Shown here: positions 5,118-63,938 of the stretch, in pieces | Numbering within the stretch: the stretch's first letter is position 1 | Layout of the letters: every line of letters begins with the position of its first letter | Origin: Gammaproteobacteria bacterium | Lineage (GTDB): Bacteria; Pseudomonadota; Gammaproteobacteria; Legionellales; Legionellaceae | Assembly (NCBI GenBank): GCA_022600575.1 | Contig: JAHZKF010000100.1 | Coordinates: forward strand, 1 to 64,000 | Reading direction: 5' to 3' | Length of the DNA: 64,000 nt | Made by a program: the position numbers and the translations under genes | Notes under the pieces: model-generated | Seen by the model: the letters and a program-made list of their open reading frames with translations, nothing else | The model's database searches: none | What the model was told of the DNA's origin: nothing

Positions 5118-6756
5118 CACAGGCCTCACCAAGCTTTCGTAATGTTTCAGGGCAATCTTCACGCGTAAGCTTTAATTCAATAAAACATAGCTTATCTTGG
5201 TGTGTCTCACATGCTAATAAAACATCTTCCAACTCATCTTCTGTTTTAACAATACTTGAAAATACAGCTTCTCCAAAAATATTGGGTAATGCTGCATAAT
5301 TCCAGGGTTGAACATCGTTATAAGGCATCTTCATCCCATGAATCACGCGTTCAATCGTATAACCATCGTTATTAAGTAAAAAAATGATAGGCGTTAACTT
5401 ATGCCGCAACATGGTTGAAACTTCTTGTGCGGTTAATTGAAACGACCCATCACCTATAAACAAAATAGAACGACGCTTTCTATCCGCTAAAGCAGCACCC
5501 AGTAAACCACCCACTGTATATCCAATAGAGGCCCAAAGCGGTTGTGTAATCACAGTAACAGGATGCAAAATAGGAGCGTCTAAAAGACCAAACATACTCG
5601 TTCCTGTTTCTGCCAAAATAATATCTTGTGGCTTGAAATAATTCGCCATTCGATCCCAAAAACGCTGCTGCGTTAATAATTCAGGAGATGGCTTATATTC
5701 TGGCATTTTTAAAGGTGTTATCTGTTCTGTATGTTGATATTTACCAAGCGCCTTAATCAATGCCGGAATCACCGCATCAAAATAGACATCAGGATAAAGT
5801 GCATGTTTAATTTTGACGTAGTTACTATGAATTTCTATCGTTGCACTCGCATCTAAATGACAGGTAAATCCACCTGTATTAAAATCTGAAAGCATTGAAC
5901 CAAACGCCAAAATACAATCCGCACCTTCAATCCGTGCTTGAACCCCTGGCGTACTGTAATCGCCCTTATATCCTCCCAAAAAATAAGGGTGTGATTCATC
6001 AAAGATGCCTTTAGCCATATTCATGGTTGCAAGTGGCAAACCGGTATTGCTTAATAACGTTTTAATGGAATCTTTCATGGGATGACGCACAGCGCATAAA
6101 TCTGCAAGCACAACGGGAGCCTTAGCAGCACAGATTAAACTTGCCGCACGTTCAGCTAACTCATCTACAACCTTTTGATTTGATTTTGGATAAGCAAGAT
6201 GTAATTTATTTTGAGGCGCATCAATTAAAACATCGATATGATTACTGGGTAGGCCAATATAAACTGGCTGTTTTTTTATCCAACCAATCTCAAGCGCTTT
6301 ATCTAATTCACGTGCTGCGTGCTCTGGCGTATCTAAAATAGCAACAGCAGCTGACACTTTCTTAAACATCTCTAAGAAAACACCAAAATCTCCTGTTCCA
6401 AGCGTGTGATGCATCAGCATCCCTGCTTTCTCAACGGTTGTTGCAGGCCAACCAACTATATTAATGACCGGCAAATACTCTGCAAAACTACCTGCAATAC
6501 CATTGATAGCACTCAGTTCACCAACCCCAAACGTCGTAATCAAAGCGGCTGTTCCGTTAACACGTGCATAACCATCTGCAGCATATGACGCATTCAACTC
6601 ATTGCAATTTCCTACCCATTCAAGGCCATCAGAAGCCACAACCTTATCAAGTAATGCTAAATTATAATCTCCCGGAACCCCAAATATTTCATCAATACCG
6701 AGCTCTTTTAAACGCTGCAATAAATAATCCGCAATACTGATTTGTTTGATTGCCAC
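5098..6756 (-). CDS. Pyruvate/indolepyruvate decarboxylase family ThDP enzyme
   Basis: Thiamine-diphosphate-dependent 2-oxo acid decarboxylase converting pyruvate, phenylpyruvate or indolepyruvate to the aldehyde; 552 residues, normal for the family. Visible motifs are the ThDP-activating glutamate in NCNELNASYAADGYAR (about residue 53), the adjacent catalytic histidines in LMHHTLGTGDF (116-117), and the Mg-ThDP motif beginning GDGSFQ and ending NNDGYTIE. The start is GTG at 6756, supported by AGGAG eight bases upstream. The substrate is unresolved: sequence alone does not separate PDC from IpdC/KdcA types. The PAS-GGDEF gene overlaps its 3' end. Confidence 0.92.
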   Translation of the reverse strand: MAIKQISIADYLLQRLKELGIDEIFGVPGDYNLALLDKVVASDGLEWVGNCNELNASYAADGYARVNGTAALITTFGVGELSAINGIAGSFAEYLPVINIVGWPATTVEKAGMLMHHTLGTGDFGVFLEMFKKVSAAVAILDTPEHAARELDKALEIGWIKKQPVYIGLPSNHIDVLIDAPQNKLHLAYPKSNQKVVDELAERAASLICAAKAPVVLADLCAVRHPMKDSIKTLLSNTGLPLATMNMAKGIFDESHPYFLGGYKGDYSTPGVQARIEGADCILAFGSMLSDFNTGGFTCHLDASATIEIHSNYVKIKHALYPDVYFDAVIPALIKALGKYQHTEQITPLKMPEYKPSPELLTQQRFWDRMANYFKPQDIILAETGTSMFGLLDAPILHPVTVITQPLWASIGYTVGGLLGAALADRKRRSILFIGDGSFQLTAQEVSTMLRHKLTPIIFLLNNDGYTIERVIHGMKMPYNDVQPWNYAALPNIFGEAVFSSIVKTEDELEDVLLACETHQDKLCFIELKLTREDCPETLRKLGEACDAKNKG

Positions 6757-6887
6757 AAAAAAATCTCCTGAATCAAAATAATTAATTTAGGTTATTTTTA
6801 AGCTTAGCAGGAAAAAAAAATAAGGCCCTTTTTCTATGCAATAAAAAAGAGCCTCAAAAAACACGTGGTAACCATTTAACTTTGAAT

Positions 6888-7556
6888 TTACCCAGGCGCA
6901 TTCTGACGAATATGCTGAGCTGCATCTGCATCACCTCTTTGCGTCCAAGCCTGTGCAAGAATATCTGTTAAATCAATTTGGGTCTTTTTCAAATCAGCCT
7001 TAGCATCACTTGGTAAATCTTTTTCAGAAGGTGATACAAATTGCTGAATAATGGTTGCCAGCGGAATAACCGTCAATGCAAGTAATAATGTCAGACTAAT
7101 AACAGCTGTATCTCGTATTATTTCTAACGGTATTGCAACCATCCATGCCAAAACATTAAGCACATGAGCATCTTTACGTGATTCTAGATACGTGTCAGCC
7201 ATTAATTTACGGGCAAGTAATGGAAAAATTAGAAAATCAAACAACCCTTTACTGCCTGTTTCAATATCACTCTCTTTATCCGCATGGTTAACAACATAAT
7301 TCCTTATTGCGCCATCAAATAACGGGTGATGTGCACCCCCTATTAAACCGACCATATGAAAAATATTAACAACATAGTCAAGCCCTAACCCACGTCTTAC
7401 TTTTAAAAAGTAATCTGCTTTATCTTGAATCAACTCATAAAAAGTAAGATCTTCTACATCAAATACTTCTGCATACATTTTACCTGGTACTTTTCCTTTC
7501 ATTTGAAGGCCAGCATCTTTTGAGCAAGGATTTAAGGCAGTAAAAAATTTAGTCAC
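6888..7556 (-). CDS. Unrecognised protein with paired membrane helices
   Basis: Protein of 222 residues matching no family I know. Residues 1-110 are mixed and polar, with YDV- and DYVVNIFHMVGLIGG-like stretches. Two adjacent hydrophobic segments around residues 135-175 (VLAWMVAIPLEII...AVISLTLLLALTVIPLATII) suggest a membrane hairpin. The C-terminal 45 residues are hydrophilic (DLPSDAKADLKKTQIDLTD). There is no signal peptide. A single-gene unit with its own promoter just upstream. Two-helix membrane proteins with soluble flanks are common among secreted effectors of intracellular bacteria, but nothing here proves secretion. Confidence 0.7.
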   Translation of the reverse strand: MTKFFTALNPCSKDAGLQMKGKVPGKMYAEVFDVEDLTFYELIQDKADYFLKVRRGLGLDYVVNIFHMVGLIGGAHHPLFDGAIRNYVVNHADKESDIETGSKGLFDFLIFPLLARKLMADTYLESRKDAHVLNVLAWMVAIPLEIIRDTAVISLTLLLALTVIPLATIIQQFVSPSEKDLPSDAKADLKKTQIDLTDILAQAWTQRGDADAAQHIRQNAPG

Positions 7557-18005: not shown

Positions 18006-19472
18006 CTAGTTGCTACAATCCCCTTCTACAACACAGGGATATAAACCTTTAGAAAAGGCATAATTATTATCCGCATCAAAATTCAATGTCCAATCAAACA
18101 CGCCCCCGATATCGGGATACGAATTAGGGGCCGTATAACTACGACATGCCTCTCCTGTTCGTAAACATTGAATCGCATCTTTTACGATAGGAATAACAGC
18201 CGCAGGCGACCCATCACTGGCCCCTGAACCATTCTTCGAAGCATAACCAAGTACAACCTGTGAAGGCGTTAAAAGACTTTTATAGGGTTGAAAGTTTGAA
18301 GGCCAGTCTTCTAACAAATCAGCTGCAACAGCAACTGCTGTATCAGGATATGCTGTCAATGCATCCTCGTCACTTTCAAGAGGATAACAACGCCCATCAA
18401 GCCCCAAAACACACCCCGAGTTATAAATTTGAAAGCCCACCCAGGTAAGTGATGGAGCCGTTTGCATCACAAGTGATGCGTAATTCCCCCAAAATGAAGC
18501 AAAAGTTGCCGTGGCCGCAACATTAGCAAGCTGAGGGGCTAACGTTAGCAAACTATCTGGCGACTGTTCGTGGAAGCTATTGATAATGGTAGAAAGTGTG
18601 GCAATATCGCAGTTGGGATTATAGACCGTGCCATCACCACAACCCTCAGTTGGGTCACTAAATGACAACCCTGGATTAAGGCCTGATTCAATATCAAAAT
18701 CAAACCCATCAAGCCCATAATCAGTTACCAATTTAGCCATTGAGTCATTAAACTTCCCGATAAACTCATTCGGGCTTGCTGCAAGACTGATAGCTTGCGT
18801 AAAGCTAACCGTTGTATCAGGTATGCTCGTTGATGCACCACCAAGCGATAATAAGACTTTAACACCTACCGCATGCAACTCATCAACATACGTTTTTAAA
18901 TCAAACCCACTCACTGCCTCAATGTTAATGGTGCCGGGATCGGTTGTACTAAACAAACCAAACGCAATTAAAACATGAGTATAATGAGCTGCGACAACGT
19001 CTTCAGCCTTTGGAGGCTCTACCCAACCATATAAATAACCAATGATTCTACCGGGTGTCACGGCCAAAGCTTTTATCTTTTGAACTGAAATAGGTTGGCT
19101 TCGCGCATTCAGAGCTAGCTGAAACTCAATTTCTTCTTTTTCAACAACTCTATTTGTCCCTCTAGCAACTCTAAAAGATTGAACCGCATTGTCTTTTGCT
19201 GGAAAAAGACACCAATTATTTTGAGGGTTAACCTTACAAGCCCTATTATCACCTGAAAGAGAAAAATCAGGATGAGAGATTTGTAGCCCTGCACTATTAT
19301 AAGTAAAGCCTGGTGTTTTTGTGTGAACAATTAAAGTTCTCCCGGAACCACCATCTGCATCTTTTACAAAAGACACATACGCAAACGGTTGCACAGCAGC
19401 ATAAGCAGACAATACAAAACCACCAAAGCCCATTAAAAGCCCTAATTTTGCATACAAAAACATCTTTTTCAT
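18006..19472 (-). CDS. Secreted GH18 chitinase
   Basis: Glycoside hydrolase family 18 enzyme expected to cut beta-1,4-linked N-acetylglucosamine polymers. 488 residues. The signal peptide MKKMFLYAKLGLLMGFGGFVLSAYA is followed by a beta-rich domain to about residue 130, then the GH18 barrel. Catalytic motif YGLDGFDFDIES carries the D-x-x-D-x-D-x-E pattern intact, and KVLLSLGGAS is the typical SxGG strand. The end is DIGGVFDWTLNFD. The OMP-like gene lies 36 bp upstream on the same strand, so they may be cotranscribed. Chitin of protist cysts, arthropods or fungi is a possible target. Confidence 0.92.
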   Translation of the reverse strand: MKKMFLYAKLGLLMGFGGFVLSAYAAVQPFAYVSFVKDADGGSGRTLIVHTKTPGFTYNSAGLQISHPDFSLSGDNRACKVNPQNNWCLFPAKDNAVQSFRVARGTNRVVEKEEIEFQLALNARSQPISVQKIKALAVTPGRIIGYLYGWVEPPKAEDVVAAHYTHVLIAFGLFSTTDPGTINIEAVSGFDLKTYVDELHAVGVKVLLSLGGASTSIPDTTVSFTQAISLAASPNEFIGKFNDSMAKLVTDYGLDGFDFDIESGLNPGLSFSDPTEGCGDGTVYNPNCDIATLSTIINSFHEQSPDSLLTLAPQLANVAATATFASFWGNYASLVMQTAPSLTWVGFQIYNSGCVLGLDGRCYPLESDEDALTAYPDTAVAVAADLLEDWPSNFQPYKSLLTPSQVVLGYASKNGSGASDGSPAAVIPIVKDAIQCLRTGEACRSYTAPNSYPDIGGVFDWTLNFDADNNYAFSKGLYPCVVEGDCSN

Positions 19473-33440: not shown

Positions 33441-33540
33441 AAACAAACTCCTGTTACTTTTTTTATAGTCTTTGAAAACAGATTTAGCCAGTAAATCAGT
33501 AAGAGAATTTCCGATTAAATGTGTAAGGAAAAAGAAAAAA

Positions 33541-33574
33541 GAAAAAAAGCCAAGGAAAATTGGGTCTCCTTAGC
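33541..33574 (-). terminator. Probable terminator downstream of the longer TALE-like gene
   Basis: On the minus strand, GCTAAGGA pairs with TCCTTGGC (one G-T) around a 10-base loop, followed by seven Ts, about 115 bp past the stop codon at 33691. The rest of the 33441-33690 gap is A+T-rich, with no ORF. Confidence 0.65.
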
Positions 33575-33690
33575 CTTTAACAACGTACACCATACAAAAA
33601 CTATTTCATATTAAATAGGTAAACATGCTATAAAAAAATAACTTTAACAGTGTTATTATTTCCTAATCTATATAATTTAAAGTGAATGAC

Positions 33691-35013
33691 CTAGCCACCC
33701 ATTCTTACATTGCGCTCTCTCGGCTGTTGCGTTCTATCAGTACAAACACCTTCTTCACCTGGCATACTGGGACTCGAAAAAATACTATAGTCAAGTACGG
33801 CACCACGTGCTGCATCAGCTTCCTTCGCTGCATCAGCTTCATCAAGGAGGGTGACTAATGTAGGAATGAGATCATCTTCTCCATCACCCCACACAGCCTC
33901 TTCATGATTGGAAGGAGCAATTGGGTTCATTTGACGAGGTAAGCTCGCCTCTATATTCGGCGTACCATCTAAAGGACTACTGGTGGCTTCAGATAAATCA
34001 CCAAAAATAGCAATATCATCTAAAAAATCGTCACCTCCAAAAGCGTCATAAAAGCTTCTTTTTTGATTTAACTTCCCGCCCCCCCCCGCTGCAGAAACTA
34101 TTTTTAAAATAGATTCACGTGAGTGTCCAGAAGAAAAAAGCATTTTACTGTGCTCAAGCACAGCCTCAAGATTCTTGGAACCTCCGCTATGCGAGACCAT
34201 ACGAACGAGGTCTTCTGAATTAAATTCAAGCGCCATTAAAGCAGCCTGATATCTCGCAACAGCCTCAAGATTCTTGCTTCCCCCATTATGCGAGACCATA
34301 CGAACGATTTGTTCTGAATTAAACCCAAGCGTCATTAAAGCAGCCTGATATCTCGCAACAACCTCAAGGTTCTTACTTCCCCCACCATGCGAGACCATAC
34401 GAACGATTTCTTCTGAACTAAATCCAAGCGTCATTAAAGCAGCCTGATGTGTCACAACAGCCTCAAGGTTCTTACCCCCCCCACCATGCGAAACCATGCG
34501 AATCACTTGCTCTGAATTAAGCCCAAGCTCCATTAAAGCAGCCTGATATCTCGCAACAGCCTCAAGATTTTTGCTTCCCCCAATATGTGAGACAATACGA
34601 ATCACTTGCTCTGAATTAAGCCCAAGCTCCATTAAAGCAGCCTGATGCGTCACAACAGCCTCAAGATTCTTGGAACCGCCAATATGTGAGACCATGCGAA
34701 CGAGGTCTTCTGAATTAAATCCAAGCGTCATTAAAGCAGTATGATATCTCGCAACAGTCTCAAGATTCTTGGACCCCCCAATATGTGATGCAATACGAAT
34801 AATTTGAGCACGTGTTAAGTGATGAGGCGCATCCATTAAAACAGGGTAACAAGCAAGAACTGTACGAACTGTATTAAAAGACGATTTTCGAATAATCAGT
34901 TTTTCAGCTTCTAACGCTGAAAAGCCTGCTTCTTGTAATGATGATTTTTCATCATTAAAACGCGTCTCTGATATACCATACTTGCTTAAGCGTGCTGTCA
35001 AATCTGAATGCAT
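33691..35013 (-). CDS. TALE-like DNA-binding repeat protein, seven full repeats
   Basis: 440 residues from the ATG at 35013; a GTG at 35022 is also in frame. Residues 1-30: helical start. Residues 31-65: degenerate repeat whose end VLMDAPHHLTRAQ matches, from memory, the Xanthomonas TALE repeat-0 boundary (ALTGAPLNLTPEQ). Residues 66-296: seven exact 33-residue repeats, each S11-H12-x13-G14-G15 with K17, L19, E20, V22, A28-L29. Residue pairs 12-13 are HI, HI, HI, HG, HG, HN, HS. A half repeat (HSRESILKIVSAAGG) follows, then a basic patch (KLNQKR) and a roughly 120-residue acidic tail with FGGDDFLDDIAIFGDL and GDGEDDLIPTLVTLLDEADAA. The family wraps DNA, one base per repeat. Host-directed regulation is inference. 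Two poly-G tracts lie in the gene. Confidence 0.93.
   Translation of the reverse strand: MHSDLTARLSKYGISETRFNDEKSSLQEAGFSALEAEKLIIRKSSFNTVRTVLACYPVLMDAPHHLTRAQIIRIASHIGGSKNLETVARYHTALMTLGFNSEDLVRMVSHIGGSKNLEAVVTHQAALMELGLNSEQVIRIVSHIGGSKNLEAVARYQAALMELGLNSEQVIRMVSHGGGGKNLEAVVTHQAALMTLGFSSEEIVRMVSHGGGSKNLEVVARYQAALMTLGFNSEQIVRMVSHNGGSKNLEAVARYQAALMALEFNSEDLVRMVSHSGGSKNLEAVLEHSKMLFSSGHSRESILKIVSAAGGGGKLNQKRSFYDAFGGDDFLDDIAIFGDLSEATSSPLDGTPNIEASLPRQMNPIAPSNHEEAVWGDGEDDLIPTLVTLLDEADAAKEADAARGAVLDYSIFSSPSMPGEEGVCTDRTQQPRERNVRMGG
34079..34087 (-). repeat. Homopolymeric G9 tract inside the TALE-like gene
   Basis: Nine consecutive Gs on the coding strand encode Gly residues between the half repeat and the basic/acidic tail. 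Gain or loss of one base would shift frame and remove the C-terminal region while leaving the repeat array intact. Confidence 0.8.
34126..34818 (-). repeat. Array of seven 99-bp TALE-like repeats
   Basis: Seven in-frame units of 99 bp with nearly invariant DNA around the codons for GGSKNLEAV. Differences concentrate on codon 13, codons 2-7 and the end of each unit. Repeat 4 carries G8 (34475-34482) where the others have GGAAG-type sequence. Confidence 0.93.
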
Positions 35014-35018
35014 TTCTA

Positions 35019-35049
35019 TCACTCAAAAAAAAATAAGAGTGACATTATA
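35019..35049 (-). promoter_or_regulatory. TATAAT -10 box and inverted repeat TCACTC-N12-GAGTGA before the longer TALE-like gene
   Basis: Minus strand: TATAAT at 35044-35049, then GTCACTC, a T-rich spacer, and GAGTGA ending six bases before the ATG at 35013. The right arm supplies the only Shine-Dalgarno-like GAG. The repeat would span the predicted transcription start and is therefore a candidate operator. The same arrangement precedes the shorter gene. Confidence 0.6.
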
Positions 35050-35113
35050 AAACAATTATGATTCAAATAGAATCTTTTTGTTTTTATTTAATTCATTTGT
35101 GAGGTTTTATCTC

Positions 35114-36037
35114 TCATCCGCCTGGTGCACTGTTGTTATATCTCGATGCTTGCACGCCATAAGCACAAGAACCTTCCTCAGCAGGCATAATGGGACTCGA
35201 AAAAATACTATGTTTAAATACGGCATATGCTACATCAGCTTCCTTCGCTGAATGCACTTCATCAAGGAGGGTGACTAATGTAGGAATAAGATCATCTTCC
35301 CCATCACTCCACACAGCCTCTTCATGATTGGAAGGAGGAACTGGGTTCATTTGACGAGGTAAGCTCGCCTCTATATTCGGCGTACCATCTAAAGGACTAC
35401 TGGTGGCTTCAGATAAATCACCAAAAATAGCAATATCCTCTAAAAAATCGTCACCTCCAAAAGCGTCACAAAAGCTTCGTTTTTGATTGTGTTTTTTTGA
35501 GCCCCCCGATGCAGAAACGATTTTTAAAATAGATTCACGTGAGTGTCCAGAAGAAAGAAGCATTTTACTGTGCTCAAGCACAGCCTCAAGATTCTTGCTT
35601 CCCCCATCATGTGAGACCATACGAATCACTTGCTCTAAACTAAATCCAAGCGTCATTAAAGCAGCCTGATATCTCGCAACAGCCTCAAGATTCTTGCTTC
35701 CCCCATTATGCGAGGCCATACAAATCACTTGCTCTAAACTAAATCCAAGCGTCATTAAAGCAGTCTGATATCTCGCAACAGCCTCAAGATTTTTGGAACC
35801 TCCGCTATGCGATGCGATACAAACAATTTGAGCACGTGTTAAGTGATGAGGTGCCTCTATTAAAACAGGGGAATAAGCAATAACTGCACGAACTGTATTA
35901 AAAGACGACTCTCGGATGATCAGTTTTTCAGCTTCTAACGCTGAAAAGCCTGCTTCTTGTAATGATGATTTTTCATCATTAAAACGCGTCTCTGATATAC
36001 CATACTTGCTTAAGCGTGCTGTCAAATCTGAATGCAT
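35114..36037 (-). CDS. TALE-like protein, three full repeats (short paralog)
   Basis: 307 residues from the ATG at 36037; a GTG at 36046 is in frame. The first 65 residues are nearly identical to the longer paralog, including the repeat-0-like segment ending APHHLTRAQ. Three 33-residue repeats follow with residue pairs HS, HN and HD, then a half repeat (IVSASGG), a stronger basic patch (KKHNQKR) and the same acidic tail (FGGDDFLEDIAIFGDL, GEDDLIPTLVTLLDE). The final 20 residues differ from the paralog. Xanthomonas TALEs need roughly six or more repeats to activate transcription, so this form may bind weakly, pair with the longer protein, or be a contracted allele. Tandem upstream neighbour of the longer gene with its own promoter. 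Confidence 0.9.
   Translation of the reverse strand: MHSDLTARLSKYGISETRFNDEKSSLQEAGFSALEAEKLIIRESSFNTVRAVIAYSPVLIEAPHHLTRAQIVCIASHSGGSKNLEAVARYQTALMTLGFSLEQVICMASHNGGSKNLEAVARYQAALMTLGFSLEQVIRMVSHDGGSKNLEAVLEHSKMLLSSGHSRESILKIVSASGGSKKHNQKRSFCDAFGGDDFLEDIAIFGDLSEATSSPLDGTPNIEASLPRQMNPVPPSNHEEAVWSDGEDDLIPTLVTLLDEVHSAKEADVAYAVFKHSIFSSPIMPAEEGSCAYGVQASRYNNSAPGG
35546..35842 (-). repeat. Array of three 99-bp TALE-like repeats
   Basis: Three 99-bp units. Repeats 2 and 3 both begin FSLEQVI, suggesting recent duplication or conversion. At the position matching the G9 tract of the paralog the coding strand here has only G6. Confidence 0.9.
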
Positions 36038-36042
36038 TTCTA

Positions 36043-36072
36043 TCACTCAAAAAAAATAAGAGTGACATTATA
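36043..36072 (-). promoter_or_regulatory. Duplicate TATAAT box and TCACTC-N11-GAGTGA inverted repeat
   Basis: Minus strand: TATAAT at 36067-36072, TCACTC and GAGTGA arms at 36060-36065 and 36043-36048, with the same distance to the ATG as in the longer paralog. The conserved stretch runs about 30 bp and ends just upstream of the -10, so it was retained through the gene duplication. Confidence 0.6.
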
Positions 36073-36137
36073 AAACATAAAAGCTTAAAAGAAAATCTTG
36101 TTGTCCTTTATTTAACCATACATGCAGAGCAATAAAT

Positions 36138-36166
36138 TTACCCCTGCGCATACTATACAGGGGCAA
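36138..36166 (-). terminator. Hairpin downstream of icd
   Basis: Minus strand TTGCCCCTG...CAGGGGTAA, a 9-bp stem with one G-T pair, followed by ATTTATT, 8 bp after the icd stop. The T-run is weak, but the hairpin separates icd from the TALE-like genes. Confidence 0.55.
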
Positions 36167-36173
36167 ATAAAGA

Positions 36174-43317: not shown

Positions 43318-44613
43318 ATGTCTAATACAACTTTATCATTGCATTTTTTATCTGAAGAGATACTGACAGACCTCGGTCTCTCTTCAAGTGATATTATAGA
43401 TAATAATCAATGGAACTTTGCTGACAGGTTAAAAAAACTATCTTCTACACAACTCTCGTCTGCTTACACTAATCACACCCTTTTAAAAATAAAATATCAA
43501 ACTTTATGTGCTGAACTTATTAAAAATGCTAACCATTATGATGAAGAAAAACAAACCAGTCGTATTGCTTCTATCTTAATGTTTGCTCAATTACTCGAGC
43601 ACACGCAACTTCATAGTACAAAAGCAGAATTACATGCACTACAACACACAGAGGCCATTTGCCGAAACTATTTACAAGCACTTGGCCTAACCGTTCCCAA
43701 ATACCGTCCTAAACAAAATCCTAAAGATATTCTGGACTTAAACGAAGACACCATTAAAACCACAACCACACAGTTAGATTTTTGGAGACTCATCATCCTT
43801 CGCGGGCGTCGTGTCTTATTTTGGTCTATCGCCCTCATCAACAACGAATCTTACAGTTATTATGCAGCCCCTTTAGAAAGCTTGCTACGAACCCTTATAT
43901 TCTTTCAAGCCTGTTTATTAGTCCCTCGTTTCATGACTAATGTCTTGCACCTGTTAAAACACGCATGGTCACCAAACAAAAACGAACGGGATTTGTCTGC
44001 CTTAGAACGTCAGCAAGTGCATCTCAACATGAATGGACGCTGGTGGGAAATAGCTTATGATTTTGGTTGGATAACGGCCGGATTATTGAATGCTTTCGTA
44101 CTCACAGGCCCATTGGCACCCTTTGCTATTTATGCTGCAGTTGTATTACCTTCATACAATCTATTTTTACACTCAACGCGTCTTTTTATAGAAGATAATC
44201 GCTTTAAAGAACTGGAACGCATCTATAAAAACAAGCTTCTTCAGCCATCCTCAAATCAAGAGGAATTAAATGCATTTTTAGAACAATTAAATCAACGCCG
44301 TCGATACAATCAAAATACATTGTTATTACGCGTATCCGTATGCGTTAGTATCATCTCAACAGGTGTCTTTGCAGTATGGACCGTATCAGCACCTCTTATC
44401 CCCTTCATAGCTGCTATCATCTCCGTTTTAGCAACCATTGCAGGGAAACTTATTCCAGCCTATTTACCTAAACAACAAGACAAACTACAAGCATCAGATC
44501 TGAAACCTTCTCCACTTTTGAGTCATACTTTATTTTCAAATAGACACACCTCATCTCAAGCGCTTGCAGAACAAATAGTACCCGATGCAGTAGAAGAAGG
44601 CTTAGTGATATAA
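43318..44613 (+). CDS. Membrane protein of unknown family, tandem paralog A
   Basis: 431 residues, preceded by an excellent AGGAGG. Residues 1-160 are soluble and helical (LSLHFLSEEILTDLGL, LLKIKYQTLCAELIKNANHYDEEK). Then come about four hydrophobic segments (around residues 180-205, 250-285, 335-375), separated by a charged loop with WSPNKNERDLSALERQQ. The polar C-terminus ends VEEGLVI. I know no family. Its neighbour is a clear paralog. A soluble N-domain plus several helices and no signal peptide would suit an effector inserted into host membranes, but this is inference. Confidence 0.75.
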   Translation: MSNTTLSLHFLSEEILTDLGLSSSDIIDNNQWNFADRLKKLSSTQLSSAYTNHTLLKIKYQTLCAELIKNANHYDEEKQTSRIASILMFAQLLEHTQLHSTKAELHALQHTEAICRNYLQALGLTVPKYRPKQNPKDILDLNEDTIKTTTTQLDFWRLIILRGRRVLFWSIALINNESYSYYAAPLESLLRTLIFFQACLLVPRFMTNVLHLLKHAWSPNKNERDLSALERQQVHLNMNGRWWEIAYDFGWITAGLLNAFVLTGPLAPFAIYAAVVLPSYNLFLHSTRLFIEDNRFKELERIYKNKLLQPSSNQEELNAFLEQLNQRRRYNQNTLLLRVSVCVSIISTGVFAVWTVSAPLIPFIAAIISVLATIAGKLIPAYLPKQQDKLQASDLKPSPLLSHTLFSNRHTSSQALAEQIVPDAVEEGLVI

Positions 44614-44724
44614 AAATAACCGTCACAAATGACCAACAATAAAATGATTAATTATATACTGAAAAAATACTAAGCCCAGATAAATAACAGGTATCATCTC
44701 CATGATTTATTATTAGAGTAATAT

Positions 44725-46023
44725 ATGCCTAATATAAACTTTTCATTACATTTTTTAACCAAAGAGGTACTACTCGACCTTGCTCTCTCTCCAAATGATA
44801 TCATGGAAAATGAACAATGGAACTTTTCTGACAGATTAGAAAAACTACCTTATAAACAACTTTCATCTAGCTATACAAACCACACCTTTTTAAAAATAAA
44901 ATATCAAGCTTTATGTGCTGAACTCATTAAAAACGCTAAACAGTACGAAGAAGATAAACAAACAAACCATATCATCTCTATCTTAATGCTTACCCAATTA
45001 CTCGAACACATGCAACTTCATGGCACAGATGCAGAACTAACTGCGTTACAGCATACAGAAGCTATTTGTCGAAATCACTTACAAAAGCTTGGGATAACCG
45101 TTCCAAAATACCGTTTCAAACAAAAGCCTAAAGATATTTTAGATATAAATGAAGACACCATTAAAGCAACAACAACACAATTAGATTTTTGGCGATTAAT
45201 CATAAATCGCGGTCGTCGTGCTCTATTCTGGTCTATTCCTCTTATTAATAATTTTGATTATTACGGGCGCTTTGCAATCCCTTTAAACGATTTCTTACGA
45301 ACAGTTGTGCTCTTTCAAGCCTGTGTATTAATCCCTCGATTTATAACGAATATTTTGCATCTTTTTAAACACGCATGGTCACCAAATAAAAATGAACTAT
45401 GTTTATCTGCCTTAGAGCGCCATCAGATACGTCTTAACATGAATGGACGTTGGTCAGAAATTGCCTATGATTTTGGCTGGATAACAAATGGTCTATTAAA
45501 CGCGTTTGTACTTACAGGTTCATTAGCACCCTTTGCTATTTATACATCTATTTTATCATCTTCATACAATCTATTTTTACACACAACTCGTCTTTATGTA
45601 GAAGATAATCGATTCAAAAAACTTGAAGACTTTTATAAAAGAAAACGCTATCAATCTACATCAGACCAAGAAGCATTAAAGACATTTTTAGAACAACTAA
45701 GCCAACATCGAAAATACAATAAAAATGCACTTTCATTACGCGTTGCTGTCTCCATTGTTGTTGTCTCAACAGGTATCTTTACAACATGGATTGTATCCGC
45801 ACCTCTTATTCCCTTTATAGCTGCTATTTTTTCCGTTTTAGCAACCATTGCAGGAAAAATCATTCCTGCTTATTTACCTAAACAACAAGACAAATTAAAA
45901 GCATCAGATCTGAAACCTTCTTCACTTTTGAATCATACTTTATTTTCAAACAGACATCCCTCATCTCAAGCGCTTGCAGAACAAATAGTACCTGATGTAA
46001 CAGAAGAGGGCTTAGTGATATAA
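44725..46023 (+). CDS. Membrane protein of unknown family, tandem paralog B
   Basis: 432 residues, colinear with the gene 111 bp upstream and visibly about 70% identical by eye. Shared blocks include HTEAICR, PKDILD.NEDTIK, RGRR.LFWSI and KHAWSPNKNE, and both end with EEGLVI. The differences cluster in the N-terminal 40 residues and in the loop after the first helix. The ribosome-binding site is weaker (GAG). Recent tandem duplication; function unknown. Confidence 0.75.
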   Translation: MPNINFSLHFLTKEVLLDLALSPNDIMENEQWNFSDRLEKLPYKQLSSSYTNHTFLKIKYQALCAELIKNAKQYEEDKQTNHIISILMLTQLLEHMQLHGTDAELTALQHTEAICRNHLQKLGITVPKYRFKQKPKDILDINEDTIKATTTQLDFWRLIINRGRRALFWSIPLINNFDYYGRFAIPLNDFLRTVVLFQACVLIPRFITNILHLFKHAWSPNKNELCLSALERHQIRLNMNGRWSEIAYDFGWITNGLLNAFVLTGSLAPFAIYTSILSSSYNLFLHTTRLYVEDNRFKKLEDFYKRKRYQSTSDQEALKTFLEQLSQHRKYNKNALSLRVAVSIVVVSTGIFTTWIVSAPLIPFIAAIFSVLATIAGKIIPAYLPKQQDKLKASDLKPSSLLNHTLFSNRHPSSQALAEQIVPDVTEEGLVI

Positions 46024-59860: not shown

Positions 59861-60502
59861 TTATTTATCATGCTTCTTATCATACGATGGCTTTTGTTCA
59901 GCTTCGCCCTCAGGTTGTCCATCCATTGCATCACCCGAAAAAAGCCCATGACTTGTATCCGTAAACGAGGTTACTTTTTCTTTAGCTTCTGATGCCTGAT
60001 GACTTACATCTGCACTAAGCGCAATCCCTACTCCTGTAGGAACCAGCTCTAATAAGACGAGTAATGATATACCTGCACTTGGTATCGCAAAAACAAGCGC
60101 AATCACCGTAAATGTAACCGCTAAAAACCCAAAAAAAGCACATTCAGCCGCTGCAGTGTTGGCCTCTCGACCTAAATCACGTGCCAACAATAAAGATTGC
60201 TGATTGTTTTCTTCATCAACAACCCCTTTTAATCCATCCTCAAGCGTCTGAATAGAACGCCCTAACATTTCTACCACATCCCTACAATCTCTTGGCATCG
60301 CTTTAATGGTGGCGCGTAGTTCATCTGCTCGACTTCTATAGAGTCCAATACATTCTTGTTGCTCTTTCGTGCCTTCTTTTCTTATTTTATCTATAACTAA
60401 CTCTAATTTCTCATCGAATTCTTTTAACAAGGATTTACGTGTTTTTTTACGATTACCAAAATCATATGCCTTATATTGTCCGTTTAATTTGGTATGACTC
60501 AT
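59861..60502 (-). CDS. Two-helix membrane protein of an unrecognised expanded family, copy 1
   Basis: 213 residues. Starts MSHTKLNGQYKAYDFGNRKKTRKSLLKEFDEKLELV, then a helical region (EGTKEQQECIGLYRSRADELR), the block DEENNQQSLLLARDLGREAN shared by the paralogs, and two hydrophobic segments around residues 122-165 (AFFGFLAVTFTVIALVFAIP and GISLLVLLELVPTGVGIAL). The tail ends DKKHDK. Downstream of copy 2 by 37 bp, so probably one transcript. It is most like copy 2 and slightly shorter. Function unknown. Confidence 0.8.
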   Translation of the reverse strand: MSHTKLNGQYKAYDFGNRKKTRKSLLKEFDEKLELVIDKIRKEGTKEQQECIGLYRSRADELRATIKAMPRDCRDVVEMLGRSIQTLEDGLKGVVDEENNQQSLLLARDLGREANTAAAECAFFGFLAVTFTVIALVFAIPSAGISLLVLLELVPTGVGIALSADVSHQASEAKEKVTSFTDTSHGLFSGDAMDGQPEGEAEQKPSYDKKHDK

Positions 60503-60539
60503 GACATTATCCCCGTTTTATATTAAATCTAAAACAAAC

Positions 60540-61217
60540 CTACTCATGCTTAGGATGCCTAGATTTACCACCATCAACCCCATGCCGCTCATCATGTTCA
60601 TCTTCCTGATGTAACGATGACATAGTCCCTGCACTTGAATCACCCGAAAAAAGCCCATGACTTGTATCCGTAAACGACTCTACTTTGTCTTCAGCTTCTG
60701 ATAACTGATGGCTAAAATATGCACCAAGACCAACCCCTACCCCTGTGGGAAACAGTTCTAATAAAAACAATAATGATATACCTGCAGTTGGTACTGCAAA
60801 AACAAGTGCAATCACCGTAAATGTAACCGCTAAAAACCCAAAAAAAGCACCTGCAGCCGCTTCACAATTGGCCTCTCGACCTAAATCACGTGCCAACAAT
60901 AAAGATTGCTGATTGTTTTCTTCATCAACAATCCCTTTTAATCCATCATCAAGGGTTTTAATAGAACGCGCTAACATTTCCACCCCATACCAATCATATT
61001 CAGATGGCATCGCTTTAATGGTGGCGCGTAGTTCATCTGCTCGACTTTGATAAAGCGCAATACATGCTTGTTGCTCTTTCGTGCCTTCTTTTCTTATTTT
61101 CTCTAAAACCAATTCTAATTTATCATCAAATTCTTCTAGTAATTTCTTACGTGATACACTTTTACCACCAGCAAAATAAAATGGCTGATATTCTCCGTTT
61201 AATTTTGTATAACTCAT
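60540..61217 (-). CDS. Two-helix membrane protein of the expanded family, copy 2
   Basis: 225 residues, nearly colinear with copy 1 through the membrane segments: MSYTKLNGEYQPFYFAGGKS, KKLLEEFDDKLELVLEKIRKEGTKEQQ, DEENNQQSLLLARDLGREAN. The tail is rich in Asp, Glu, His and Gly (HQEDEHDERHGVDGGKSRHPKHE). The GGGGATAATGTC leader before the ATG and a TATAAT box 50 bp upstream are shared with copy 3. No family recognised. Confidence 0.8.
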   Translation of the reverse strand: MSYTKLNGEYQPFYFAGGKSVSRKKLLEEFDDKLELVLEKIRKEGTKEQQACIALYQSRADELRATIKAMPSEYDWYGVEMLARSIKTLDDGLKGIVDEENNQQSLLLARDLGREANCEAAAGAFFGFLAVTFTVIALVFAVPTAGISLLFLLELFPTGVGVGLGAYFSHQLSEAEDKVESFTDTSHGLFSGDSSAGTMSSLHQEDEHDERHGVDGGKSRHPKHE

Positions 61218-61266
61218 GACATTATCCCCTTCTCAACAAAGGTTAAAAAAAGATCTTTATAGTTTA

Positions 61267-61272
61267 ATTATA
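61267..61272 (-). promoter_or_regulatory. Shared TATAAT promoter motif, copy 2
   Basis: Minus-strand TATAAT followed by TAAAC and a T-rich tract, 50 bp before the start of copy 2. Almost the same sequence stands before copy 3 (62307-62312) and copy 5 (63981-63986). No clear -35 is conserved. Confidence 0.5.
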
Positions 61273-61329
61273 GACTGATAAATAGGGTTTGGTTCCGAGT
61301 ATGCAAAAGGTATGACAATCAGCCCTTAC

Positions 61330-61452
61330 CGTCTTTGCGAGGAACGTAGTGACGCGGCAATCTACCTTTGCGTCTTTGCGAGCTGACTTCACGTCCCATG
61401 CAAGTTTTAGCCGTCGTTACGAACCCGAACGTAGTGAGTGGTGTGGCAATCC
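61330..61452. repeat. REP-like repeats (TTGCGAGGAACGTAGTGACG family)
   Basis: Three related units: GTCTTTGCGAGGAACGTAGTGACGCGGCAATC at 61330-61362 (shown here in two halves), a partial copy from 61371, and GTCGTTACGAAC...GTAGTGAG...GGCAATCC at 61411-61452. The same core occurs inverted at 62.45 kb. No coding capacity. The rest of the 61218-61574 gap is otherwise empty. Confidence 0.65.
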
Positions 61453-61574
61453 AGCGTCTTTTTTTTAATATTTAAAGTCTCTGGACTGCCGCACCTTCGG
61501 TGTGCCGTGACGGTATATGAACATAAAGTTATGCTCACAACATTTTTCATATCTTGTGTAATCACTCGCAAAAA

Positions 61575-62258
61575 CTAGTCATTCTTATGATGCCGAGACT
61601 TATCACCATCAGCCCCATGCTGCTCATCATGCTCATCTTCATGATGCAATGGATTTGACGTACCCCCTTCACCTGAACCCTTTGAAAACATACTATGACT
61701 TGCATCAATAAATGACGTTGCTTTTTCTTTGGTTTTTGATACTTCATGACTTTCATACGCAAAAAAACCGGCCACAGCAGCATATGGAACAAAATCAATA
61801 AGAAACAGCAGAGACAATCCTCCTGAAGGTATTGCAAATACAAGCGATATCACAAGAAATGAAAGCGCCATCAAGCCTATAAAAGCAGCTCCTACTGCTT
61901 CTAAGTTGGCATCTTGACCTAAATCACGCGCTAATAATAAAGATTGCTGATTATTTTCTTCATTCACTCTACCTGCCAATAAATCATCAAAGCTTTGAAT
62001 GGATCTCCCTAATATCTCTCTATCATACTGAACATAACCACCAGATTTAAACGTTTCAACAATGGTACGTAGTTCATCTGCTCGCCTCCGATAAAACACA
62101 GCATATTCCTGCTGTTCCTCCGTACCTTCACTTTTTATTTTGTCTAAAACCAACTCTAATTTCTTATCAAATTCTTTTAATAAGGCTTTGTGTGATGTAT
62201 TCCGACGGCCACCAAAATCATATCGCTTATATGTTCCGTTTAATTTGACATAACTCAT
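61575..62258 (-). CDS. Two-helix membrane protein of the expanded family, copy 3
   Basis: 227 residues beginning MSYVKLNGTYKRYDFGGRRNTSHKALLKEFDKKLELVLDKIKSEG. The shared block reads NEENNQQSLLLARDLGQDANLEAVG. Two hydrophobic segments follow (AFIGLMALSFLVISLVFAIP, LSLLFLIDFVPYAAVAGFFAY). The acidic His-rich tail HHEDEHDEQHGADGDKSRHHKND resembles copy 2. Isolated between repeat-filled gaps with its own promoter. Unknown function. Confidence 0.8.
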   Translation of the reverse strand: MSYVKLNGTYKRYDFGGRRNTSHKALLKEFDKKLELVLDKIKSEGTEEQQEYAVFYRRRADELRTIVETFKSGGYVQYDREILGRSIQSFDDLLAGRVNEENNQQSLLLARDLGQDANLEAVGAAFIGLMALSFLVISLVFAIPSGGLSLLFLIDFVPYAAVAGFFAYESHEVSKTKEKATSFIDASHSMFSKGSGEGGTSNPLHHEDEHDEQHGADGDKSRHHKND

Positions 62259-62306
62259 GACATTACCCCTTTACAGAAAAGATTAAAAAATGAATATTAT
62301 GGGTTA

Positions 62307-62312
62307 ATTATA
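62307..62312 (-). promoter_or_regulatory. Shared TATAAT promoter motif, copy 3
   Basis: Minus-strand TATAAT followed by TAACC, 49 bp before the start of copy 3, matching those before copies 2 and 5. Confidence 0.5.
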
Positions 62313-62334
62313 GGTTATGGAGTGAGGTTTTGCC

Positions 62335-62485
62335 GTCTTTGCGAGGAACTTCGTTCCGCGGCAATCTGCTTTTTTAGAATAGGCTTTTAACATAAAAATT
62401 TCTAACCCCTGGATTGCCGCGCTACGCTCGCAAAGACGCCAAGGACAAGGGCAGATTGCCACGTCACTACGTTCCTCGCAAAGAC
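62335..62485. mobile_element. MITE-like element, 151 bp, terminal inverted repeats of about 35 bp
   Basis: Left end GTCTTTGCGAGGAAC then CGGCAATCTGC; right end is the inverse (GCAGATTGCC... GTTCCTCGCAAAGAC) at 62451-62485. Between them is another half unit, GGATTGCCGCGCTACGCTCG (62411-62430). No ORF. The arms match the 61.33-kb repeats. Confidence 0.65.
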
Positions 62486-62521
62486 AGTAAAACCTAAATG
62501 ATATAACCACATAGACAAAAA

Positions 62522-63244
62522 CTACTCATTCTTATGATGCCCAGATTTATCATCATCACCATCAAAATCAACATCATATTGCTCATCTTTAGACTGTGGT
62601 ACATTTTGATCTGGAACAGAAGAGAAAAATCCACGGCCTTTTTCCGTAAATGAAGACAGCTGTTGATGCTGCTTTTCAAATTGAATACCCTTACCTGTCG
62701 CAGGAATAGCCTTACTTTCAGCAAGCAAAGTACCAAACAACAAAAATAAACTAGCTCCACTGGTTGGGCCTACAAATGCAATTGCAAGTACAACCGTTGT
62801 AATACTGACAAAATGATATAAGGCTGCCTCAACTTTTTCGTTCCGAGCGCGTTTGCCTACATCACGCGCTAAAATTAAAAGTTGCTTGCTATTATCATCA
62901 TTCTGTTTGTTTTCAAGTACATCATCAAAGCATTGAATGGAGCGCGCCAACACTTCTCTTATCCATGGAATACCTACTAACTCACCTTCTTTCCTGGTGC
63001 TCCAATCAGCTTCATAAATAAAATTTCTTAATTCAATTGCTTGCTCTTCATACAATGCTGCACATCCCTCTTGCCCGAGTCCATCTTCTTTTCTCATTTT
63101 CTCTAAACATTGCTCGAGCTTCGTATTAAACATACGCAAAAGTACGTAGTGCTCTGGATTCACATCCCCATATTTTTTTTCAAAATCATACATCTGATAA
63201 ACAGCACCAGCCGCTATAATATCCTTTGAAACTGAATGCACCAT
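62522..63244 (-). CDS. Two-helix membrane protein of the expanded family, copy 4 (divergent)
   Basis: 240 residues from the ATG at 63244, preceded by AGGGG; the longer frame to 63361 overlaps copy 5 and is not needed. It starts MVHSVSKDIIAAGAVYQMYDFEKKYGD, so it lacks the usual TKLNG start. Shared features are MYDF, the KLEQCLEKMRKE helix and NKQNDDNSKQLLILARDVGKRARNEKVE. The hydrophobic segments are VSITTVVLAIAFVGPTSGASLFLLFGTLL. The acidic tail is VDFDGDDDKSGHHKNE. Transcribed behind copy 5 (19 bp gap). Confidence 0.75.
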   Translation of the reverse strand: MVHSVSKDIIAAGAVYQMYDFEKKYGDVNPEHYVLLRMFNTKLEQCLEKMRKEDGLGQEGCAALYEEQAIELRNFIYEADWSTRKEGELVGIPWIREVLARSIQCFDDVLENKQNDDNSKQLLILARDVGKRARNEKVEAALYHFVSITTVVLAIAFVGPTSGASLFLLFGTLLAESKAIPATGKGIQFEKQHQQLSSFTEKGRGFFSSVPDQNVPQSKDEQYDVDFDGDDDKSGHHKNE

Positions 63245-63263
63245 AGCATAAACCCCTAAATAA

Positions 63264-63938
63264 TTACTTTTCGTGACGCTGCTGCTGTTCCAAATCCTTA
63301 TTATTGGTATCTTCCTGATGATCTGAATCTGATGAAAACAACCCTTGGCTTGTTTCAGCAAAAGATGTGATTTTCTCTTTTCTTGAAGTCGCTTTCTCTT
63401 TATTTTCTAAAATCTCATTTCGTTCTTCTAATAAAATGCCCGCAGCACAACCCGCAACAACCGTATCAATCAAGAACAACAACGAGATACCACCAGTTGG
63501 TATTGCAAGTACAAGTGCCACAACAAGACATCCAACCCCAAGAAAAGCCTCAACCGCTGCGCCAAAGGCAAATATATTAGCGCTCACGCCCTCAGTATGC
63601 GCAAGCTCCTCAAATCGACGCGCTAAAAGTAACAGTTGATAATTATTCTCATCATCTATTTTACCTACCAACAAATCATCAAAACTCTGAATAGCACGCG
63701 CCAACACCTGCTCATTTTTACTTTCTTTAATAAATCGGCGTAAATTAATCGCTTGCTCTTGATAAGCTGCTATTGCTTCTGGATTCTTTTGGTTATCAAC
63801 CTCATGGAGTTTATTCACACACGCCAATAATTGCGAATCAAACTCTTTTAGTAACTCAGTAAAACTTGGCTTTTTATCGCCATATTTTTCTTTAAAATCA
63901 TATAGCTGATAAACATCGTTCAATTTTAAATAAGTCAT
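63264..63938 (-). CDS. Two-helix membrane protein of the expanded family, copy 5
   Basis: 224 residues: MTYLKLNDVYQLYDFKEKYGDKKPSFTELLKEFDSQL, then NEQVLARAIQSFDDLLVGKIDDENNYQLLLLARRFEELAHTEG. Hydrophobic segments are AFLGVGCLVVALVLAIP and GISLLFLIDTVVAGCAAGILL. The tail (HQEDTNNKDLEQQQRHEK) is Gln-rich. First gene of the copy 5-copy 4 pair, with the shared TATAAT motif at 63981-63986. Confidence 0.8.
   Translation of the reverse strand: MTYLKLNDVYQLYDFKEKYGDKKPSFTELLKEFDSQLLACVNKLHEVDNQKNPEAIAAYQEQAINLRRFIKESKNEQVLARAIQSFDDLLVGKIDDENNYQLLLLARRFEELAHTEGVSANIFAFGAAVEAFLGVGCLVVALVLAIPTGGISLLFLIDTVVAGCAAGILLEERNEILENKEKATSRKEKITSFAETSQGLFSSDSDHQEDTNNKDLEQQQRHEK

What the first reader, a model, noticed from the sequence alone, without database searches (positions are those of the whole stretch)
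33691..36046. Two tandem TALE-like DNA-binding proteins in a probable intracellular gammaproteobacterium
The repeat unit is exactly 33 residues with S11-H12-x13-G14-G15, L19, E20 and V22. This is the Xanthomonas/Ralstonia/Burkholderia TALE-like fold, and all variation is focused on residue 13. A repeat-0-like segment aligns without gaps to the Xanthomonas one over about 26 residues (from memory). Known TALE-likes come from plant pathogens, Burkholderia/Mycetohabitans endosymbionts and marine metagenomes; I do not know of a well-characterised set from a Legionellales-type genome. A host-nucleus role is attractive because some Legionellales live in amoeba nuclei.
Basis: partly seen in the sequence, partly recalled or inferred. 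Interest (0 to 1): 0.97.

Follow-up and report, generated by a model that had tools for sequence, protein, structure and literature searches.

The report
Paired short TALE-like proteins in Legionellaceae
Two neighbouring genes in a Legionella-family bacterium encode short proteins built from the same 33-residue repeats as the DNA-reading TAL effectors of plant pathogens, and they are likely injected into a protist host and predicted to act on its genes, which would make them a test case for how few such repeats can still work.

Summary
Window 33691-35022 and 35114-36046 (both minus strand) encode proteins with 7 and 3 core repeats of exactly 33 residues. Both match Pfam TAL_effector (E 2.7e-25, 6.2e-17), and the AlphaFold2 model of the longer one matches TALE and BurrH structures far above other listed folds. 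Residue 13 is the most variable repeat position across the family and is mostly I, D, N or G, the residues of the TALE code (recalled). Cryptic repeats flank the core, as in Mycetohabitans Bat proteins. The pair is an insert between icd and clpS, absent there in 6 of 6 congeners. The genome has a Dot/Icm cluster and no FlhA/SctV homologue.

The kind is not new: TAL-like effectors were reported computationally in Legionella (2025) and in a choanoflagellate associate (2022). Added here: short tandem arrays, activation-domain-like acidic tails, a tail motif ([LIMVF]F) of the family, and a long-repeat branch with a predicted beta-hairpin per repeat. DNA binding, export and nuclear entry are untested. 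Seven, and especially three, repeats lie below what Bat proteins and TALEs needed for detectable binding or activity, so B may not read DNA alone.

The parts
33691..35022 (-). TALE-like protein A, 443 aa from GTG or 440 aa from the ATG at 35013; 7 core repeats, residues 12-13 HI HI HI HG HG HN HS
34819..35013 (-). A: N-terminal cap, residues 1-65, two cryptic repeats (-1, 0), two helices each
   Evidence: helices 5-11, 16-28, 33-40, 45-60 in the model; alignment to a TALE chain
34126..34818 (-). A: seven core repeats of 33 residues (residues 66-296)
   Evidence: pLDDT blocks 91-98
34027..34125 (-). A: degenerate C-terminal (+1) repeat, residues 297-329, with the basic KLNQKRSF stretch
   Evidence: compare the +1 cryptic repeat of Bat proteins
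33967..34026 (-). A: acidic-hydrophobic, activation-domain-like segment (residues 330-349)
   Evidence: function inferred
33811..33867 (-). A: second acidic segment, low-confidence predicted helix 383-401 in an otherwise disordered tail
   Evidence: pLDDT about 50
33772..33789 (-). A: YSIFSS, the [LIMVF]F tail motif 30 residues from the C-end
35114..36046 (-). TALE-like protein B, 310 aa from GTG or 307 aa from the ATG at 36037; 3 core repeats, residues 12-13 HS HN HD
35843..36037 (-). B: N-terminal cap, residues 1-65
   Evidence: close to A, pS 0.09
35546..35842 (-). B: three core repeats (residues 66-164), identical in P0003 from another contig
35447..35545 (-). B: degenerate +1 repeat, residues 165-197, with KKHNQKR
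35117..35446 (-). B: acidic tail with HSIFSS 30 residues from the C-end
35017..35049 (-). A: leader with -10-like TATAAT and the inverted repeat TCACTC..GAGTGA just before the start codon; B has the same
   Evidence: sequence read directly; A/B leader alignment
36041..36072 (-). B: the same leader and inverted repeat
33447..36173 (.). icd-clpS interval that carries the insert (2.7 kb here, about 140-210 bp in six congeners)

Best explanation
The window holds two tandem, recently duplicated genes for short TALE-like proteins (7 and 3 core repeats) that are likely exported by the bacterium's Dot/Icm system into a protist host, where they would bind short DNA sites at one base per repeat and likely raise nearby transcription through an acidic tail. 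Shown: the genes, the repeats, the residue-13 pattern, a predicted TALE superhelix for A, the cryptic cap repeats, the Dot/Icm cluster, the insert between icd and clpS, and the acidic tails. Inferred: export, nuclear entry, DNA binding by the TALE code, and activation. If the TALE code holds (recalled), A would favour a site like AAATTG plus one base and B a three-base site. These are too short to single out one gene, so the likely effect is action at many AT-rich sites, or B helping A or acting mainly through its tail.
Against: I found no binding data. Bat3 with six core repeats gave no clear shift, TALEs with fewer than 10 repeats had little activity, and Bat1 showed little tolerance to reduction below 18 (PMC4066763, passages); A has 7 repeats and B 3. 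The window's two proteins match none of my NLS patterns. The repeat domain of A is not net basic (25 K+R, 24 D+E). Codon 13 shows pN 0.49 against pS 0.63, so no excess of replacement changes is shown. No secretion predictor was run. The [LIMVF]F pattern and its position were chosen after looking at these tails; anywhere in the tail a near form ([LIMF]F) is barely over shuffles (41 of 45, mean 34.6, max 41), a stricter form is in 20 of 56 family proteins, and the loose form is not enriched in own-genome C-ends (64 of 192 against 623 of 1959 control segments, p 0.36). The family was collected with the window's own words, so positions 14-19 are biased towards it.
Confidence: 0.5

Rival explanations
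1. The pair (B above all) are TALE-derived proteins that no longer read DNA usefully and act in the host through protein contacts of the tail or repeats, as proposed for truncated TALEs and for six-repeat MTAL3/Bat3.
For: 3 and 7 repeats; Bat3 with 6 repeats shows no clear shift; PMC10746252 (passages) discusses DNA-independent action of MTAL3 and truncTALs. A long gene beside a short one is also the Bat2/Bat3 layout.
Against: B's three repeats and their residue-13 set are unchanged in P0003 while its tail drifts, which suggests that the array is used, though silent changes could not be counted; K17 and the loop glycines G14 and G15 are kept in 10 of 10 repeats.
Confidence: 0.27
2. The proteins act inside the bacterium, as regulators or on mobile DNA, and are not exported.
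For: DNA-binding fold without a proven export signal; the leaders share an inverted repeat that could serve regulation.
Against: NLS-like patterns are far over chance in family tails, 28 of 45 against at most 12 in shuffles, which a bacterial regulator does not need; patchy presence, 29 of 143 family genomes, and an empty site in 6 of 6 congeners fit accessory effectors. Published DeepLoc and T4SEpp predictions for related proteins point to the host.
Confidence: 0.12
3. They are RuvA-like or mTERF-like repeat proteins misread as TALEs.
For: PF07499 RuvA_C (49.2 bits) and PF02536 mTERF (32.9 bits) also pass their cut-offs for A; one source names relatives RuvABC subunits.
Confidence: 0.02
4. 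Array lengths are wrong because a draft assembly collapsed near-identical repeats, so the real proteins may be longer.
For: The genome is a 110-contig draft; the repeats are 99-bp units with 83-90% matches.
Against: B is found with the same three repeats on a separate contig (P0003); both frames are intact with full tails.
Confidence: 0.07

Closest known systems
Legionella TAL-like effectors (McGowan et al. 2025, PMC12482156; outline, section 8 and passages read)
   Same: 33-residue repeats, Legionellaceae, low repeat numbers (3-13 after their manual analysis), predicted TALE superhelix, proposed type IV export and nuclear action
   Different: The paper's focus is a 10-repeat L. quateirensis protein with an NLS. 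Here: a tandem pair with 7 and 3 repeats, no NLS by my patterns, and an acidic tail with an [LIMVF]F motif. I could not see its Table S6, so this genome may be among its unnamed species.
Bat/Btl/MTAL (BurrH) proteins of Mycetohabitans
   Same: two N-terminal and one C-terminal cryptic repeats, divergent repeats, residue 12 varying little, a long gene beside a short one (Bat2/Bat3); the best PDB sequence hit
   Different: 20, 26 and 6 core repeats in Bat1-3, T3SS delivery and a fungal host there; 7 and 3 repeats and a Dot/Icm genome here
Xanthomonas TALEs and Ralstonia RipTALs
   Same: fold, repeat length, residue-13 alphabet, modular tail
   Different: many more repeats (typically 17 in Xanthomonas), longer terminal regions, T3SS delivery, plant hosts; here no FHIPEP (FlhA/SctV) homologue was found
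TAL-like protein of Ca. Synchoanobacter (Comchoano-2) (PMC9418006, passages; locus L015)
   Same: SHxGGSKNLxAV repeats of 33 residues, 49% identity in the best segment, protist associate
   Different: 11-12 repeats, a short tail, a marine choanoflagellate partner, not a Legionellaceae

Membership tests
TALE-likes (TAL effector repeat superfamily) | tandem repeats of 33-35 residues matching PF03377 | tested here: met
TALE-likes (TAL effector repeat superfamily) | conserved residues around the loop plus V22 and L29 (consensus TALE-like repeat) | tested here: met
   G14, G15, V22, L29 in 10 of 10 repeats; feature described in PMC4066763, whose full list of ten residues was not visible to me
TALE-likes (TAL effector repeat superfamily) | base-specifying residue 13 is the variable one and uses the code residues | tested here: met
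   rank 1 of 33 in within-protein entropy; 190 of 242 I/D/N/G
TALE-likes (TAL effector repeat superfamily) | two-helix repeats stacked as a TALE superhelix | tested here: met
   predicted model of A only; rmsd 8-11 A, so the overall shape differs from the crystals; residue 13 placement in the groove was not measured
TALE-likes (TAL effector repeat superfamily) | cryptic repeats flanking the core | tested here: met
TALE-likes (TAL effector repeat superfamily) | sequence-specific DNA binding by the TALE code | not testable with these tools
   needs EMSA or SELEX
Xanthomonas-type TAL effector | type III secretion | tested here: not met
   no FHIPEP (FlhA/SctV) match in the 94%-complete own genome; 4 of 14 control genomes match
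Xanthomonas-type TAL effector | nuclear localisation signal | tested here: inconclusive
   28 of 45 family tails match NLS-like patterns, the window's two do not; they have only KR clusters
Xanthomonas-type TAL effector | acidic activation domain | tested here: inconclusive
   acidic-hydrophobic segments present by a score of my own; activity untested
Xanthomonas-type TAL effector | enough repeats for activity (about 10 or more) | tested here: not met
   7 and 3 repeats
Legionella TAL-like effectors (McGowan 2025) | TAL repeats in a Legionellaceae genome with Dot/Icm | tested here: met
   family placement inferred from kin
Legionella TAL-like effectors (McGowan 2025) | predicted type IV effector and nuclear localisation | not tested
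   T4SEpp and DeepLoc are not available here
mTERF | mTERF-type helical repeats as best fold match | tested here: inconclusive

The most novel reading that the evidence does not exclude
Legionellaceae hold a large, Dot/Icm-delivered branch of TALE-like host transcription activators that work as short, dense-site readers. Tandem pairs with 3-7 repeats would act together at many AT-rich sites of protist nuclear DNA, with a tail code of NLS, acidic activation segment and an [LIMVF]F export or host-binding motif that other window ORFs share, and the branch includes beta-hairpin-bearing long-repeat forms that Pfam mostly does not see.
Probability: 0.23. Interest if true: 0.85.

Novelty: new member of a known kind. 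Interest (0 to 1): 0.57.

Why it matters
The TALE-likes that have been studied by experiment and whose source is known come from plant pathogens and one genus of endofungal bacteria (recalled, and in line with passages of PMC11261895 and PMC5472282). A branch in protist-infecting Legionellaceae, with matches in 29 of 143 family genomes searched, would bear on where the TALE repeat arose and on whether bacteria reprogram protist nuclei by direct DNA reading. The 3- and 7-repeat pair makes the lower limit of a working array directly testable, and the N12 and H12 versions within one genus offer a natural swap experiment on residue 12. The long-repeat relatives would give a new repeat scaffold if they bind DNA.

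Tried and rejected
RuvA/Holliday-junction and mTERF identities: both appear in Pfam and RuvABC in database names; rejected on score and fold. No RuvA chain is among the 50 listed fold matches, which is no evidence by itself. Phage or plasmid origin: one viral-contig scan matched 1 stretch that encodes a relative but returned 0 distinct loci, and records of or near the window's genome may be left out, so carriage on mobile DNA is unresolved. Positive selection on residue 13: not supported by counts on ten repeats. A clear NLS in the window's own proteins: not found. The FxxxLxxxK LvgA motif (PMC7251119, passages): read about, not scanned for. The [LIMVF]F tail motif as a general export signal: the loose form is not enriched in own-genome C-ends; a tighter form is modestly enriched outside the window (18 of 192 against 74 of 1523 control segments, Fisher p 0.011) but was drawn up from these same tails and window ORFs, and protein A itself does not match it. 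A tree of the N-terminal cap (34 proteins, up to 95 residues) has weak support; it pairs A with B (0.997) and does not join them with the other same-genus proteins. RVD-code papers: one search returned 0 papers, so base preferences are recalled from the TALE code. Prior reports: searches (3 papers; 1; 5; 15 listed of 1,730) showed, besides the 2025 paper and the 2022 paper on a Coxiella-related lineage, no other listed title that announces TALE-likes in Legionellales; that is the held library and listings only.

Data handling: P0013, P0019, P0003 and L023 were dropped as duplicates, near-copy or fragment, leaving 56 proteins. Of these, 36 with at least 3 neighbouring 33-residue repeats entered, and 45 with at least 60 residues after the last repeat and no X entered. 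Whether each tail is complete was not checked. Some rows are related (P0006 with L014, the two L025 genes), so counts are not independent. The acidic-segment score is my own, not a published predictor.
Full report
OBSERVATION. Two minus-strand ORFs at 33691-35022 (A) and 35114-36046 (B) exist as stated. Each starts at GTG or, three codons later, at ATG; the protein database uses the ATG, giving 440 and 307 residues. A has seven core repeats and B three, spaced exactly 33 residues, each followed by one degenerate repeat. Residues 12-13 read HI HI HI HG HG HN HS in A and HS HN HD in B. Across the ten repeats S11, H12, G14, G15, K17, N18, L19, E20, V22 and L29 are invariant. Pfam TAL_effector scores 88.6 and 62.0 bits (cut-off 28), and BurrH is the best PDB sequence match at 1.2e-105. 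The one overstatement is that all variation sits at residue 13: other positions vary too.

THE CODE POSITION. Among 242 repeats from 36 family proteins, position 13 has the highest within-protein entropy of all 33 positions (1.84 bits; next 1.51), and 190 of 242 residues there are I, D, N or G (182 of 231 without the window's proteins); position 12 is H in 175 and N in 39. I, D, N and G are the residues that read A, C, G and T in TALEs (recalled). Within the window's own genus, G004 and G005 carry N12-type repeats (SNxGGAQALKTV) while the window carries H12-type repeats (SHxGGSKNLEAV), and both draw residue 13 from I, D, N, G and S, with K too in G004. That fits base reading by residue 13 alone. 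Limits: the collection was seeded with the window's own words, one scan pattern allowed only G, S or N at position 13 in its seed, and the ten window repeats show no excess of replacement over silent change at codon 13 (pN 0.49, pS 0.63; backbone 0.22 and 0.39).

GENOMIC SETTING. The pair sits between icd and clpS. In six of six congeners searched, icd and clpS are neighbours about 140-210 bp apart and neither TALE query matches there. Four of these six (G001, G003, G004, G005) have TALE-like matches elsewhere in their genomes, so the gene kind is common in the genus while this place is not. The alignment to the closest empty site (L031) runs from clpS, with gaps, to about 33611, past a hairpin-like stretch; on the icd side only 12 bp (L031) to 21 bp (L034) match. 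I infer that the pair entered between icd and that hairpin. A and B share a leader with a TATAAT box and an inverted repeat before the start codon, a close cap (pS 0.09) and a more diverged tail part (pS 0.20): a tandem duplication followed by change in array length. P0003, from another contig, is a near-copy of B with 0 of 132 differences in the repeats, 2 of 65 in the cap and 14 of 110 in the tail plus two small indels. The three-repeat array therefore looks maintained and is not an assembly accident of this genome alone; silent changes could not be counted.

FAMILY AND HOSTS. The protein search gave 40 proteins at E<=0.001, two of them the window's own, among the 7999 best-sharing candidates, a capped set. 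The scan of species genomes gave 18 loci, including Legionella quateirensis, L. yabuuchiae, Legionella sp. W10-070 and km772, Ca. Synchoanobacter, several Legionellaceae MAGs and one MAG labelled Paracaedibacteraceae on a 3.9-kb contig, which may be a binning error. With Pfam TAL_effector alone 4 of 52 relatives match, 3 over the cut-off; with a profile of the family 29 of 143 genomes of the window's family match, in 9 of 33 genera, including 5 of the 7 genus members listed. I place the family as Legionellaceae because open frames of handles G159, G095, G127 and G003 and the contig of G024 have the lengths of those in named Legionella or Legionellaceae records. The own genome has DotH/IcmK and, on the same contig, IcmQ, DotM, IcmL and IcmG over curated cut-offs and IcmN just under. 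FHIPEP, present in type III and flagellar systems, is absent, with 4 of 14 control genomes positive.

TAILS. I compared 45 tails of at least 60 residues. NLS-like patterns occur in 28 (shuffles mean 6.5, maximum 12 of 300 rounds), bipartite ones in 16 (mean 1.6, maximum 5). [LIMVF]F lies 19-50 residues from the C-end in 36 (shuffles mean 14.3, maximum 24 of 500), against 64 of 192 own-genome C-ends outside the window (p 1e-8). Against this: pattern and position were chosen after seeing the tails, and anywhere in the tail a near form ([LIMF]F) is barely over shuffles (41 of 45 against 34.6, maximum 41). Acidic-hydrophobic 20-mers of activation-domain type occur in 29 (shuffles mean 15.2, maximum 21; own-genome C-ends mean 8.4, maximum 14; 100 rounds each; my own score). 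A and B have the acidic segment and SIFSS but not the NLS patterns, only KR clusters. A similar [LIMF]F motif sits 25-38 residues from the end of seven other window ORFs at 43318-46023 and 59861-63938; two further window ORFs, at 9949 and 29887, match the strict pattern too. Outside the window the strict pattern is modestly enriched in C-ends (p 0.011), the loose one is not (p 0.36). I read it as a family feature, and as no more than a lead to a shared export or host-binding signal.

MECHANISM. The most likely reading is a pair of Dot/Icm effectors that carry a TALE-type DNA-reading array and an acidic tail into a protist. The weak point is array length. Bat3 with six core repeats gave no clear shift, TALEs under ten repeats had little activity, and Bat1 tolerated little shortening below 18. 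A would read about seven bases and B three. By arithmetic a seven-base site cannot single out a gene in a protist genome. Action at many AT-rich sites, cooperation of A and B, or tail-driven action without useful DNA reading all remain open; the last is the main rival.

Noticed in passing
L026 and proteins P0023, P0027, P0028, P0033-P0035, P0037-P0040: TALE-like relatives with long repeats (mostly 40-72 residues) keeping the GG loop; a model of P0033 shows the TALE loop plus an inserted beta-hairpin per repeat, and Pfam TAL_effector misses 5 of 6 scanned.
   Followed up: partly
window 59861-63938 (-): Five tandem paralogues, no Pfam match in the two scanned, with an [LIMF]F motif 25-38 residues from the C-end like the TALE-likes; a similar ORF follows at L059:85-762.
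   Followed up: partly
window 43318-44613 and 44725-46023 (+): Tandem paralogue pair, no Pfam match for the first, both with HTLFSNR, its LF 27 residues from the C-end.
   Followed up: partly
window 980-1631 (+), in ORF 10-1818: A different repeat protein with an exact 34-residue unit whose main variable site is the dipeptide between HQ[ND]P and VAD; no Pfam match. It looks like another repeat family with a focused variable site.
   Followed up: no
L037, L038 (G004) and L039 (G005): Same-genus TALE-likes of N12 type with GGAQALKTV repeats at other genome places; the G004 C35 protein has NLFTARPSKRSYDAF in its tail, close to the window's KRSFYDAF.
   Followed up: partly
L025:4642-5916 and 5929-7341: Another head-to-tail TALE-like pair, in Legionella sp. 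km772, with few recognisable repeats; tandem pairs recur.
   Followed up: no
L021: TALE-like gene on a 3.9-kb contig binned as Candidatus Paracaedibacteraceae; either transfer between protist symbionts or a binning error.
   Followed up: no
Viral-contig scan: One viral-collection stretch encodes a relative but was not returned as a locus; it may be a record near the window's genome or a mobile carrier.
   Followed up: no
database names of P0004, P0008: Relatives are named RuvABC DNA-binding subunit by one source, so TALE-likes can hide under a wrong name.
   Followed up: no
window 18006-19472 (-): Family 18 glycosyl hydrolase (chitinase-type, Pfam 1.3e-10).
   Followed up: no
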